Below are positions 12,747 through 42,152 of a DNA stretch of 64,000 nucleotides, piece after piece. The notes beneath the pieces are model-generated. The model saw only the letters and a program-made list of their open reading frames with translations. It ran no database searches and was not told the DNA's origin. The position numbers and the translations under genes were made by a program. Location: NCBI GenBank assembly GCA_027946365.1, contig JAPEUQ010000004.1, forward strand, positions 2,170,001 through 2,234,000. Direction: 5' to 3'. Source of the DNA: Kalmusia sp. IMI 367209 (Eukaryota; Ascomycota; Dothideomycetes; Pleosporales; Didymosphaeriaceae). Every line of letters begins with the position of its first letter. Position 1 is the stretch's first letter.

Positions 12747-13383
12747 GCGTCCCATTGATCTGCTTATCGAATAATGCACTAATTAGGCGATTGGCTATTC
12801 AAAGTATGAAGCAAGCGACCGTTGAAAGAAACTAATGCCTGATACATGAGGAACTAGTCATTGGGGACACCAGGCGATTAGTAGCGTAAGCTATTGAAGG
12901 ATTCGGCAAGTAACTCATTGGCTCTTCGCTAAATGACCAAGAGATGAAGATAGGGGTGACCGTGCCATTGAGAGGCAGGATAATGAACATACGCTATCAT
13001 GTAAGATTCACTACCTATTTAAAACAATGAGAAAACCTTGCGACTTCCTCCCACCCAATCTAATTTTATAATAGAGTCCTGAACACTCATCGATAAAGCG
13101 CCTAGCTACTCTCATTGCACATTCAGCCGCTGAGTAGTATTGCTGTGTAAGTCTAGGCTTTGGATGGCAGGTCGAGATGCTCAGATGGGGATTTTAGTGG
13201 TGGAGGACTCTTCTTTTGGAAATATTGTTGAAGTTTTATATTACTTTGATTCGCTAGCCCTTGGCCGAACTTCGGACTGGTTCGCTAGTTATCGGATGTC
13301 GAGGCCCACCACTCAAGTTATGTGCCCCGCTTTCTAGCGCAATTAGCGGGATTACCCCTCTCTTTGCCTTATCTGCATGCTTG

Positions 13384-13390
13384 TATATAA
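13384..13390 (+). promoter_or_regulatory. TATA-like element upstream of tRNA-Leu
   Basis: TATATAA lies 36-42 nt before the first base of the tRNA. A TATA element at this distance helps place RNA polymerase III on tRNA genes in some fungi. It would also suit an RNA polymerase II promoter. Confidence 0.4.
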
Positions 13391-13443
13391 ATTTTATGAT
13401 CAAGAGAATTTTCATCAGTCAAGTCGGTGAGATGGCCGAGCGG

Positions 13444-13492
13444 GTACGTTACAATTACTGCAGCAATCACAACAACGACTAACAGACATCAG
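13444..13492 (+). other. 49-nt spliceosomal-type intron in the tRNA-Leu D-loop
   Basis: It begins GTACGT, has ACTAAC at 13478-13483 and ends ACATCAG, with about 10 nt from branch A to acceptor. These are the signals of the introns in neighbouring protein genes (GTACGT also starts introns of nicotianamine synthase, the amidohydrolase and the seven-helix protein). It splits the D-loop between G19 and T20, where tRNA-splicing endonuclease has no known substrate. Confidence 0.8.
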
Positions 13493-13505
13493 TCTAAGGC
13501 GCTAG

Positions 13506-13556
13506 GTTAGTAACCAAGTATACCATGTATGAATACGTCCACTAACAATCGGATAG
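13506..13556 (+). other. 51-nt spliceosomal-type intron in the tRNA-Leu anticodon stem
   Basis: It begins GTTAGT, has ACTAAC at 13541-13546 and ends CGGATAG. It sits between tRNA positions 30 and 31, not 37/38. Removing exactly this segment creates the perfectly paired anticodon arm CTAGC-TTCAGGT-GCTAG. Confidence 0.78.
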
Positions 13557-13614
13557 CTTCAGGTGCTAGTGTAGAAATACGCGTGGGTTCGAATCCCACT
13601 CTCATCACCATTTC

Positions 13615-13619
13615 TTTTT
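13615..13619 (+). terminator. RNA polymerase III terminator of tRNA-Leu
   Basis: TTTCTTTTT begins 4 nt after the discriminator base; its T5 run is a sufficient Pol III stop signal. This argues that the tRNA is still a Pol III gene. Confidence 0.6.
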
Positions 13620-14994
13620 GGCTGCGTTGCTCTTGCGAAGGGCACAGTCTGATGATATTCGCAGACGATGTGGGCAAATGGGGATTTTTTTTGCTAAGCG
13701 AGGGGTAAGGACACTATGGAACTTTACTCAGGGTCTTATGATTGCAACACCCATCCATGTAAGACCTGAAATATTGAAATTCAAACATTGATATCCATAG
13801 CATTCTTCTCGATCCAGGAACTGTACTTTGTTCTACGTTCTCTCCCCGCGCAAGTCTCCCAGCAATAACTATTTCGACGTTGTCATGCGACACGAACGTC
13901 CGAGCTTTGAAACTCTTTCTGAATTTTATCTTCATGCCGCGACACGATAGTCAAAGCTTCTGCTTGACTTCCTGCTTGCACTAAATTTTCAAAGTCTGTC
14001 TATTGGATATCTCGACGCTGTTACGGGGAAAGTCTCGTTACTCCGCCCTTTCTCAACCCGGCCGTTTCCATCGCTGTTCTCGACCCATTCATCGTGAACT
14101 CTACACAACATCACCCAATATGTTCAATCTCTCGAACAGGATCTATCGATTGAATCGTGGCTGCCTCGCCGTCAAACCACGTTCGAAGCAATGCCAACTA
14201 TCTCAAGGACTGGGCTCCTTCGCATCGAACCACGAACCATGTCCCTACGTGAATGGCAAGAGCTTGGAACCGATTATCGCAGCTGGCCTAAGTTTTCGTG
14301 TCTGTTCACCGAGTCTCGGATCGAAGGCATACACTCCGAAGCTTTGGCTTAGTGATACGTCCCGTCCTTGTATTATGACGTTTGCATACAGTGCCTGTTA
14401 TTGTGTACCTGCTGCCATCCAAGAGACTTTGTCTACTGACGAGAAGTATTTCAAGACCACAGTGACTGATTGACAAGACTGCGAAATGCTTTTTCATAGC
14501 TGAGGTCGACGTTTAGCGGAAAAGTACATTTTCTGCCGCTACAATGGCTAAGGCCGGGTCATCGTTGTGGGTACAAATGCCGTCTTCCAGTTTGGATACT
14601 GCAGACCTCTATGACCTTTCTGCAAACGCGCTCCAGTCGAACAACAAGCAGATTCTGAAACTTACACATTCGCATGGATTTAGTTCGTAAAAGCCACTAG
14701 GAAACGTATGACTTGCAGGCATGGCATTAAAACATAATTGTGAGGATAGATTGTCGACGGAGATACTTCAATCACACGGCACGCACAAATAATATTAAGG
14801 CTTTGGAACCATCGCGGAAAGGAAATCACATTCGCTTGTACGTCTGTATTATCAATAAAAGAATCTTGCCACCACACCCAAAGTAATCCACATCGTAAAA
14901 GCAAAACTCCACCTTACAATCTAGTTCACCAGTTCCACCACTACTCAGTCTAGTCTTGAACCCAGATTGACTGTTTCACACACTCTTACTGAGT
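13620..14994. other. Stretch between tRNA-Leu and the small membrane-protein array
   Basis: Apart from the coding-like fragment at 14095-14355, I see no gene, repeat or RNA in this 1.4 kb. A minus-strand frame at 13714-13935 has no family signature. Confidence 0.4.
14095..14355 (+). pseudogene. Unassigned coding-like fragment
   Basis: One frame is open for about 85 codons to the TAG at 14355 and has protein-like composition (for example MSLREWQELGTDYRSWPKF and CLFTESRIEGIHSEALA). The overlapping longer frame starting at 14003 has poorer composition. There is no convincing start codon or upstream exon in this frame, so it is either an internal exon or a remnant. I do not recognise the family. 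Confidence 0.3.
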
Positions 14995-31411: not shown

Positions 31412-33023
31412 ACAGAAATAGATTTCTTTTTCCTTGCTCTATCTTGCTTTTGTTGGGATAGTACATCCCATGTGCTCCCTGCCTAAACCGTCTCACACAC
31501 TTAATGACATCGCACCCTGATGATGCCGAAGGATATATACGCATCAAAATCCGCGACCATGTGGAGACTATTGAGACTTTGATTCGGTGGACGGTAGGCC
31601 GAACCGATTTCTGCGACAGGTAACGGGATGATGGCGATAGCCTTTGCACCAGTAAATATATGATGTGTTCTTTGATATAGGGGACATGTACATGTTGCGC
31701 CGTGTGGGCAGAGTGCTCTACTTGTCTAAAGGAGGAGAATATTGAGCTACGGAAAATGTGTTGTAGAGTAGTAAAGAGTAATGAGTAATGTCAAAAATGT
31801 AAAATATATTGCATTGAGATGAATTCTAGTTCCTTGGTTACAGCTGAGAATAAGACTTACTACACAGATGCCATCAATTTCAGCCGGGGATTCTTCACTG
31901 CCCTCGGATATGAACGGACTTTTGAGGGCAGCTTTGGGAGAGTTAGAGATGCAGTGAGGTTGGACAGTTCTCAATTGGAGCCACACATTCTGAAAGCACA
32001 CCCCGGTGCACCTATAGCTCAGCAGCCAACAACCATACTACCTCTATCAGTCCCGTAGCCCTAAAGCGCAAACACAGAGGTACGGGCTTTTGGCATTGTC
32101 TTGCTTCGAGTGTGGTCATGCTTGAGGCGTTGTTTCGTAACCCTACGGCAAGGTTATCGCCCCTCTAGGGTCGCAGATTACATCACTTAATGCGCATCAG
32201 TCCTCAGAGTGTTTAATCCATACATGGATACAATTCTTTGCAACAGTCTTGAAGAAGACGGAATTCTTACTCAATTTACTTCTTAAAACGTATGCTCAGA
32301 TATCCCTGCATAAAAAGCCCTACTAGAACACGTATTTGAAAGATGTAACGACTATAGGACATACTCAATAAATGATCTAGCTATATACCTCCAATGGATG
32401 GTGATCGTCCGCGTACGCTTGAGCTTTGTCTTTGGCTGGCACCAGAGAGTCATACCTATAGCGTGTGCAAATGTGTATGCAGAGCGTTGGAAAAGTAGAG
32501 TAGTTTAGAGAGGGGAAGGATGTGCGAGGGAAGGTTCTGCACAGTGCAAGCTCTTATGCAGTCTCTTTTCGTGTTGCGAAGTATCCTCCTAGCTCCCTTC
32601 GGTACCAAGAAATCTTTACCATAAAGACCTCATAATCAGAGGCAAAGTCCTCCAGATGCGGAAGCACTTGAGCCAACCCTTCGTCGTTTAGGAGAAAAAT
32701 TTAAGAGTCCACTCCAATATCTTCTGACAATATAAAGTCTATGAGCGGGCTTCATCTGCACCTCTTACACCCAGATCTCCTCTCCCCTCACCCCTTCGCC
32801 TTTGCTCATTCACCCACGCCCCTCTTTCACCACTCCCAACGCATTCCCTCGCACGGACCACCAGTCCCCACTAGCGCCCACTAGCGCGCCTCCCCCCAGT
32901 ATATAAAATCGCGCCAGCTCCCGCCTGCCCTCCTCTTTTCTCCCCCATCCCGGTGCATGGGCTTTATCTGCAGCAGTGAAGATTCGTCTGAGCTCAGATT
33001 TTTGCTAGTTGAAAACTACAACT
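31412..33023. other. Intergenic with a strong-looking core promoter at its end
   Basis: No gene is supported in the first 1.4 kb. From about 32760 to 32990 the plus strand is pyrimidine-rich (TCTCCTCTCCCCTCACCCC), with a TATA box at 32902, a layout seen in front of highly expressed fungal genes. Confidence 0.4.
32902..32908 (+). promoter_or_regulatory. TATA box
   Basis: TATAAAA lies 116 bp before the ATG at 33024, followed by a CT-rich tract and ACAACTATGACC start context. It suggests a real transcription unit begins here. Confidence 0.45.
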
Positions 33024-33611
33024 ATGACCGCTTCTGTTGAGTCTTCGGATCGGCAGGGAATCTTTGGAAAGCTTTTTTCTCTCGGGGGGCATTTGTTGGC
33101 CTTTTCTGTTTACCTTTCATTGCGTGCGCTGGTGTGTGCTGGCGGCGTGAGGAAGAGGCGTTGCGGGCTTGTGAGCGAGGTCGGGGAAGGATTGAGAGAG
33201 GTGCGTGTTTGTTTGGTGGTTGTTTGCATAGGCGCTGGGCTTACCTTGTGTTTGCGACCGTTTGGGAGGTCTGCGCCAGTCGGTGGGACTCATACGGTCT
33301 TCTTTGCTGTCGATTGTTGGCGGCGTGGTGGTATCGATTTGTTTTGTAGGCAGGCTCGAGGGGCTGTGGGTACGCTTCGAGGAATCGAGGAAGGAACCAG
33401 GCATGTATGTCAAGATAGCAAGTATATGTTTCTACAGTATTTGACTAGGTTTCAGGGTCCAGTACCGCCAGAATGTGAAGATATATGGGAACACGCAATT
33501 AGCAATTCAGATCTATCCTGGGCTATTCACCACAGACCAATGACTGAGGGAACCCTAACGGCTCCCCATGCGCTATCGCCTATTCACAGCTCGTGTGCAC
33601 AAAAACGTTGA
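33024..33611 (+). CDS. Possible small gene of unknown function
   Basis: A frame of 195 codons opens with MTASVESSDRQGIFGKLFSL and a hydrophobic helix. Its start context and promoter are good. Its second half is poor in coding character and contains possible intron signals (GTGCGT near 33201; TTGTAG near 33347), so the true product may be a short spliced protein. I do not recognise it. Confidence 0.3.
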   Translation: MTASVESSDRQGIFGKLFSLGGHLLAFSVYLSLRALVCAGGVRKRRCGLVSEVGEGLREVRVCLVVVCIGAGLTLCLRPFGRSAPVGGTHTVFFAVDCWRRGGIDLFCRQARGAVGTLRGIEEGTRHVCQDSKYMFLQYLTRFQGPVPPECEDIWEHAISNSDLSWAIHHRPMTEGTLTAPHALSPIHSSCAQKR

Positions 33612-42066: not shown

Positions 42067-42152
42067 AGCGGTGAACCAGAATTGAACTGGTGACCTTCAG
42101 GACTCCGGTGAGGACACTGCAGCCCGCTGCTCTACCACTGAGCTACCACCGC
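42067..42152 (-). tRNA. tRNA-Cys(GCA) with a 14-nt canonical intron
   Basis: The 86-nt gene folds with acceptor GCGGTGG/TCACCGC and D-arm GCTC-AGTGGTA-GAGC. The anticodon loop starts CTGCAG (anticodon GCA) and the T-arm is ACCAG-TTCAATT-CTGGT. The discriminator is U73, the cysteine identity base. The 14-nt segment TGTCCTCACCGGAG lies between positions 37 and 38, the normal site for tRNA-splicing endonuclease. The mature length is 72 nt. Pair 27-43 is a G-A mismatch and 29-41 is G-U. Confidence 0.88.

What the first reader, a model, noticed from the sequence alone, without database searches (positions are those of the whole stretch)
13426..13607. A nuclear tRNA-Leu(CAG) interrupted by two spliceosomal-type introns
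Seen: removing 13444-13492 and 13506-13556 yields a perfect 82-nt class II tRNA-Leu with full pairing in all arms. Both inserts carry GTNNGT, ACTAAC and AG at the spacing used by protein-coding introns in this window and are the same size (49 and 51 nt). They sit in the D-loop (19/20) and anticodon stem (30/31), not at 37/38. Known: nuclear tRNA introns are removed by the tRNA-splicing endonuclease at 37/38, as the tRNA-Cys at 42067 illustrates. Inference: this tRNA needs the spliceosome, or is a dead copy hit by intron (introner-like) insertions. Either way it would be a rare case of intron gain in a Pol III gene. I know of no described equivalent, but cannot search the literature.
Basis: partly seen in the sequence, partly recalled or inferred. 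Interest (0 to 1): 0.92.

Follow-up and report, generated by a model that had tools for sequence, protein, structure and literature searches.

The report
mRNA-type introns inside fungal tRNA genes
In this fungus several transfer-RNA genes, including the only two histidine tRNA genes that could be found, are interrupted by short introns of the kind found in messenger RNAs, which suggests that the cell needs its mRNA-splicing machinery to make some of its tRNAs.

Summary
In detail: removing 13444-13492 and 13506-13556 leaves a perfect 82-nt tRNA-Leu(CAG). It is not a lone oddity. Among 71 nuclear tRNA genes collected (incompletely) from this 42.8-Mb ascomycete genome, 7 genes carry 8 inserts of 49-71 nt with GTNNG(T/A)...CTRAY...YAG, none at the tRNA-endonuclease site 37/38; the other 64 have none. 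They are Leu(CAG) (two inserts), Ser(AGA), two His(GTG), two Ala(CGC) and one Pro(CGG). Lengths and branch-site spacing match eight introns of protein genes in the window. Removal restores a standard tRNA each time; in Ala and Pro an ordinary 37/38 intron also remains. Dead copies are disfavoured: exons of paralogues are identical while inserts diverge, Pol III terminators persist, and no uninterrupted His(GTG) gene was found. Most likely these are spliceosomal introns in Pol III genes, in some precursors combined with an endonuclease intron. Ten searches of an open-access library listed no report of this. There are no RNA data, no relatives to compare and no measure of assembly completeness, so splicing is strongly inferred, not shown.

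The parts
13426..13443 (+). tRNA-Leu(CAG) exon 1 (nt 1-19), holding the Pol III A box TGGCCGAGCGG at 13433-13443
   Evidence: sequence; spliced product tRNA-Leu(cag) by ARAGORN; A-box placing is from general knowledge
13444..13492 (+). intron 1, 49 nt, at 19/20: GTACGT, branch-like CTAAC at 13479-13483, CAG
   Evidence: no second copy in the genome by DNA search
13493..13505 (+). exon 2 (nt 20-30)
13506..13556 (+). intron 2, 51 nt, at 30/31 in the anticodon stem: GTTAGT, branch-like CTAAC at 13542-13546, TAG
   Evidence: no second copy in the genome by DNA search
13557..13607 (+). exon 3 (nt 31-73) with anticodon CAG, variable arm, T arm and the B box GGTTCGAATCC at 13586-13596
13615..13619 (+). 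TTTTT, probable Pol III terminator
   Evidence: sequence

Best explanation
The two inserts are U2-type spliceosomal introns inside a working Pol III tRNA-Leu(CAG) gene, and this fungus has such introns in several tRNA genes at varied positions outside 37/38. Proposed path: Pol III transcribes the interrupted gene from its preserved A and B boxes; the spliceosome removes the short GU-AG introns; in Ala(CGC) and Pro(CGG) the tRNA endonuclease and ligase also remove an ordinary 37/38 intron; the tRNA then matures as usual. SHOWN by sequence: inserts, signals, exact restoration of tRNAs, conserved exons, no intact His gene detected. INFERRED: transcription, removal by the spliceosome, order of steps, charging and use.
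For: Excision restores a tRNA in all 7 genes: Leu, Ser and His, both His, both Ala and Pro. All 8 inserts have GTNNG(T/A), CTRAY with A 9-12 nt from the end, and YAG, like eight window mRNA introns; the motif is absent from the other 64 of 71 genes. Exons of the His and Ala pairs show 0 substitutions in 143 positions against 10 in 110 aligned insert positions, Fisher P = 2e-4. TTTTT or longer within 45 nt downstream of all 7. No uninterrupted His(GTG) gene. U4 and U6 genes exist. Precedents: U6 mRNA-type intron of fission yeast (PMC10484740, passages), spliceosomal introns in rRNA genes (PMC8527467, passages).
Against: No RNA evidence. The U6 genes seen here have no intron, so the genome gave no independent Pol III precedent. 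Pair 27:43 of the spliced His tRNA is not standard in either copy. The His pair alone is only borderline for exon constraint (P = 0.051). Ser(AGA) and Pro(CGG) have paralogues without the insert, and a Leu(UAG) gene exists that might read CUG, so those genes are not provably essential. Assembly completeness is unknown and the tRNA census is partial.
Confidence: 0.85

Rival explanations
1. Dead copies: the inserts are insertions in tRNA pseudogenes and are never removed.
For: PMC4090602 (passages) says arm insertions in eukaryotic tRNA genes are usually seen in one of many synonymous genes and taken as pseudogenes. Ser(AGA) and Pro(CGG) do have copies without the insert. No RNA data exist.
Against: Both His(GTG) genes found are interrupted. 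Exons of the His and Ala pairs are identical while inserts diverge. Ser differs from its intact relative at four sites, two of which exchange one base pair for another. Every insert has splice signals at the exact tRNA-restoring boundary.
Confidence: 0.06
2. The inserts are removed by the tRNA-splicing endonuclease as ectopic introns, as in Cyanidioschyzon or cryptomonad nucleomorphs.
For: Ectopic tRNA introns, also at 25/26, 30/31 and 53/54 in archaea, are known (PMC4090602, passages), and many nucleomorph ones form no defined BHB motif (PMC3978253, passages).
Against: None of the 8 inserts forms the full 4-bp central helix of a bulge-helix-bulge in any allowed register; the best is 3 of 4 (a simple test of mine without a positive control). 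Endonuclease cutting would not explain GT...CTRAY...AG in all 8.
Confidence: 0.05
3. Origin by recent spread of one mobile intron family (introner).
For: Several tRNA genes are hit, and Pro(CGG) and Ser(AGA) occur with and without the insert.
Against: The Leu inserts match only themselves in the genome. Of 28 insert pairs, the His pair is clearly alike and the Ala pair weakly so; of the other 26, three reach P < 0.05 with scores of 10-11, little more than chance. The Ala inserts share their site but are diverged, hence not recent.
Confidence: 0.03

Closest known systems
Spliceosomal introns in rRNA genes of ascomycetes and lichen fungi (Bhattacharya et al. 2000, cited in PMC8527467; passages of the latter seen)
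   Same: mRNA-type introns in a structural RNA not made by Pol II, in ascomycetes
   Different: Pol I rRNA, not Pol III tRNA
mRNA-type intron of the fission-yeast U6 snRNA gene (PMC10484740, passages)
   Same: mRNA-type intron spliced out of a Pol III transcript
   Different: An snRNA that belongs to the spliceosome itself, the intron being thought to come from reverse splicing; no tRNA structure
Ectopic tRNA introns of Cyanidioschyzon merolae and the Guillardia nucleomorph (PMC4090602, PMC3978253; passages)
   Same: Nuclear-type tRNA genes with introns in D, anticodon and T arms, sometimes several per gene
   Different: Described as endonuclease substrates or of unknown removal, nucleomorph ones 3-24 nt; no GT-branch-AG signals described in the passages seen
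Ordinary eukaryotic 37/38 tRNA introns
   Same: Present in many tRNA genes of this genome, and beside the new type in Ala(CGC) and Pro(CGG)
   Different: Other position, other signals and presumably another enzyme

Membership tests
U2-type spliceosomal intron | GT at the 5' end with extended consensus and AG at the 3' end | tested here: met
   8 of 8 inserts: GTACGT x2, GTTAGT, GTAGGT x2, GTAAGA, GTAAGT x2; CAG x3, TAG x5
U2-type spliceosomal intron | branch-site motif CTRAY at the spacing used in this genome | tested here: met
   8 of 8, branch A 9-12 nt from the end; 9-16 nt in 8 window mRNA introns, a search that itself required the motif
U2-type spliceosomal intron | removal through a lariat by the spliceosome | not testable with these tools
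   no RNA data
canonical nuclear tRNA intron | position 37/38 | tested here: not met
   inserts at 19/20, 30/31, before 48, 53/54, 25/26 and 34/35 (numbering mine)
BHB (archaeal-like or ectopic) tRNA intron | bulge-helix-bulge with a 4-bp central helix at the junctions | tested here: not met
   0 of 8 inserts have 4 of 4 central pairs; a simple geometric test without a positive control
introner / introner-like element | near-identical copies at many sites | tested here: not met
   Leu inserts: one genome match, themselves; pairwise comparison of the 8 inserts; the other inserts were not searched genome-wide
nuclear class II tRNA-Leu | Leu anticodon, long variable arm, A73, full pairing after excision | tested here: met
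   ARAGORN; acceptor stem and T stem shared with the genome's Leu(AAG) genes
tRNA pseudogene | exons decaying like neutral DNA | tested here: not met
   0 of 143 exon against 10 of 110 insert substitutions in the His and Ala pairs; no such pair exists for Leu(CAG)

The most novel reading that the evidence does not exclude
In this ascomycete lineage translation depends on the spliceosome at the level of tRNA: all cytosolic tRNA-His must pass through it, and some pre-tRNAs (Ala-CGC, Pro-CGG) are processed by two unrelated splicing systems. This would be a class of nuclear tRNA intron that standard tRNA finders miss or misread.
Probability: 0.65. Interest if true: 0.95.

Novelty: new variant of a known kind. 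Interest (0 to 1): 0.88.

Why it matters
Nuclear tRNA introns are normally tied to one enzyme system and one site. Spliceosomal introns in several tRNA genes, at varied sites and sometimes beside an endonuclease intron, would show that the spliceosome can act on tiny, structured Pol III transcripts, would couple tRNA supply to splicing capacity, and would offer a clean system for studying intron gain outside mRNA. It also means that tRNA annotations of such fungi can be wrong: the Leu gene was not reported as a tRNA by Rfam at gathering scores, and ARAGORN gave false anticodons for unspliced genes such as Leu and Pro.

Tried and rejected
Introner family: rejected for lack of copies. BHB introns: not met in a simple geometry. 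Intact second Leu(CAG) copy: none by DNA search or by a 3' pattern with 3 mismatches; one search also failed to show the similar Leu(AAG) genes, so its sensitivity is limited. Uninterrupted Leu box A: three matches that do not look like tRNAs; the pattern missed the genome's own Leu(AAG), Leu(UAG) and Leu(CAA) genes, whose D loops differ, so it says little. Box A followed by GTANGT: one further place, not tRNA-like. U6 as an internal precedent: four matches, three that look uninterrupted and one that is shortened at its 5' part. Relatives outside the genome: viral contigs and genome contigs patterns gave nothing, or bacterial or viral tRNAs and unrelated sequence. Organism: protein searches gave no close named match; best named are Cryomyces minteri, 56%, and Acrocalymma vagum cytochrome b, 92%; I infer a pezizomycotine ascomycete, probably Dothideomycetes (their taxonomy recalled).

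Limits of the census: the 71 genes are the 43 nuclear RF00005 matches (61 minus 18 on contig C22; only 63 of 1270 first-look candidates were scored) plus 28 found otherwise. Of 308 GGTTCRANYCC places the first 100 were listed; GGTTCGANTCC listed 100 of 108 and GGTTCGANCCC 75 of 75. I fetched 13 places, 129 regions with 135 places and 11 further GGTTCAA places. Most GGTTCAA places and T arms of other sequence were not examined, and an insert inside the T arm would escape my finder. Rows dropped before counting: a two-gene chimera in L052, the tRNA-like sequences in L159, and L081.

Full report
OBSERVATION. The stretch 13426-13607 reads as stated. Excising 13444-13492 and 13506-13556 leaves an 82-nt tRNA-Leu(CAG) with all arms paired. 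Unspliced it is hard to see: ARAGORN on the window reports only the tRNA at 42067, Rfam at gathering scores finds only U4 and that tRNA, and a permissive Rfam scan of 13300-13750 lists from the tRNA clan only an 18-nt tmRNA fragment of 12.6 bits (one lower-scoring overlapping clan match is left out of that list). The A box (13433-13443) and B box (13586-13596) are uninterrupted and TTTTT follows at 13615-13619.

SIGNALS. Insert 1 is GTACGT...CTAAC (A 10 nt from the end)...CAG, insert 2 GTTAGT...CTAAC (A 11 nt from the end)...TAG. For comparison I looked for introns of the window that join two long reading frames: eight, 45-86 nt, median 54.5, nearest branch A 9-16 nt from the end. That search required GTRNGT, CTRAY and YAG, so it shows the range of length and spacing, not the share of other intron types.

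THE REST OF THE GENOME. The window is C25:2170001-2234000 of an assembly of 42,784,582 bases in 30 contigs; C22 is the mitochondrial contig (my reading). RF00005 gave 61 matches, 18 of them on C22. I fetched the nuclear ones not already held as loci and a large part of the B-box places and searched them with ARAGORN and with a finder that needs a perfect T stem, a perfect acceptor stem and a box A but allows any insert; its strict form gave 0 hits in 20 mononucleotide shuffles of the window. Of 71 nuclear tRNA genes, exactly 7 hold GTNNG(T/A)-CTRAY-YAG of 42-90 nt; they are seven of the eight longest, the exception being a 151-nt Trp(CCA) gene. The other 64 have none. In shuffled gene sequences the motif appears in 173 of 14200. 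The census is incomplete; see Tried and rejected.

THE SEVEN GENES. (a) Leu(CAG), this locus, 19/20 and 30/31. (b) Ser(AGA), C11:717554-717688, 54 nt, just before nt 48. (c, d) His(GTG), C27:659754-659893 and C1:1650189-1650330, 69 and 71 nt, 53/54. (e, f) Ala(CGC), L090 on C1 and L102 on C3, 50 and 53 nt, 25/26, each also with a 37/38 intron of 14 and 12 nt. (g) Pro(CGG), L173 on C25, 54 nt, between anticodon bases 34 and 35, again with a 37/38 intron. Excision gives Ser, His, His, Ala, Ala and Pro tRNAs by ARAGORN; for Leu both inserts must go, since removing one alone gives false calls. Rfam's tRNA model, given the six other unspliced loci, aligns them as tRNA at 35.1-47.4 bits and puts the extra letters at or around the same places; in the Ala genes it lumps both introns together.

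ARE THEY ALIVE? The exons are identical in the two His genes (71/71) and in the two Ala genes (72/72), while the inserts show 4 substitutions in 66 and 6 in 44 aligned bases, besides gaps. Pooled: 0 of 143 against 10 of 110, Fisher P = 2e-4; His alone P = 0.051, Ala alone P = 0.002. Ser(AGA) differs from the intact L038 at four sites, two of which exchange one base pair for another; Pro(CGG) differs from the insert-free L067 only inside the 37/38 intron. All seven genes have TTTTT or longer within 45 nt downstream. Two places in the genome match the first 28 nt of the His gene within 3 mismatches, the two interrupted genes, and none matches a 31-mer across the uninterrupted 53/54 junction within 3 mismatches. 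His codons are read by one anticodon (general knowledge), and 158 occur in ten long reading frames of the window, so the cell should need these genes. For Leu, CUG is 138 of 595 Leu codons in those frames, but a Leu(UAG) gene exists (C27:1245936; the anticodon is my reading, ARAGORN says taa), so Leu(CAG) is useful, not provably essential. A blemish: pair 27:43 of the spliced His tRNA is not standard in either copy.

MECHANISM. The simplest reading is a Pol III transcript spliced by the spliceosome. Precedents: the mRNA-type intron of fission-yeast U6, a Pol III RNA (PMC10484740, passages), and spliceosomal introns of lichen-fungal rRNA genes, which yeast removed from Pol I transcripts (PMC8527467, passages). 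By my placing of the boxes, inserts spare the A box in all seven genes; in His the intron splits the B box, but its 3' end supplies AG in front of TTCGATTCC, so a B-box-like element remains. In Ala and Pro the precursor would be handled by two splicing systems.

ALTERNATIVES. Dead copies, endonuclease-cut BHB introns and introner spread were tested and are disfavoured; see the rivals. PMC4090602 (passages) notes that arm insertions in eukaryotic tRNA genes mostly occur in one of many synonymous genes and are supposed to be pseudogenes; two interrupted His genes with no intact one found break that argument here.

LITERATURE. Ten searches of the open-access library listed no paper whose title or abstract start reports spliceosomal introns in nuclear tRNA genes; three listings were cut (20 of 38, 12 of 136, 12 of 82 papers). 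Passages seen of PMC5499181, PMC11782384, PMC3978253 and PMC3990503 mention none. Most subscription papers and all bioRxiv preprints are not held, so it may be described elsewhere.

VERDICT. Observation confirmed and enlarged: mRNA-type introns occur in at least seven tRNA genes of this fungus. Sequence evidence says strongly that they are removed; removal by the spliceosome is inferred. New variant of a known kind, because the intron type and its machinery are known while the host gene class is new.

Noticed in passing
L159 (C23:1747420-1748145): Two tRNA-like sequences whose middle holds related insert sequence, in one of them a long near-perfect palindrome that looks like a MITE.
   Followed up: partly
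L081 (C25:3534987-3535010): An odd tRNA-like sequence with a long variable arm, called tRNA-Thr(cgt) by ARAGORN; its 3' end resembles the Leu family at 3 mismatches. Left out of the census.
   Followed up: no
window 32947-33090: A full-length U4 spliceosomal RNA gene, 89.4 bits.
   Followed up: no
L208 (C28:665708-665780): A shortened U6-like copy that lacks the normal 5' part and has a GC-rich hairpin-like stretch in front.
   Followed up: no
window 13607-13610: The Leu(CAG) gene is followed by genomic CCA, which eukaryotic tRNA genes do not normally encode; possibly chance.
   Followed up: no
L169 (C23:3758096, minus strand): tRNA-Trp(CCA) with an unusually long anticodon-loop intron of about 80 nt, without the spliceosomal motif.
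   Followed up: partly
L071 and L076 (C1:609642-610252, C8:708655-709265): Two similar B-box-bearing repeats that resemble a tRNA-derived SINE.
   Followed up: no
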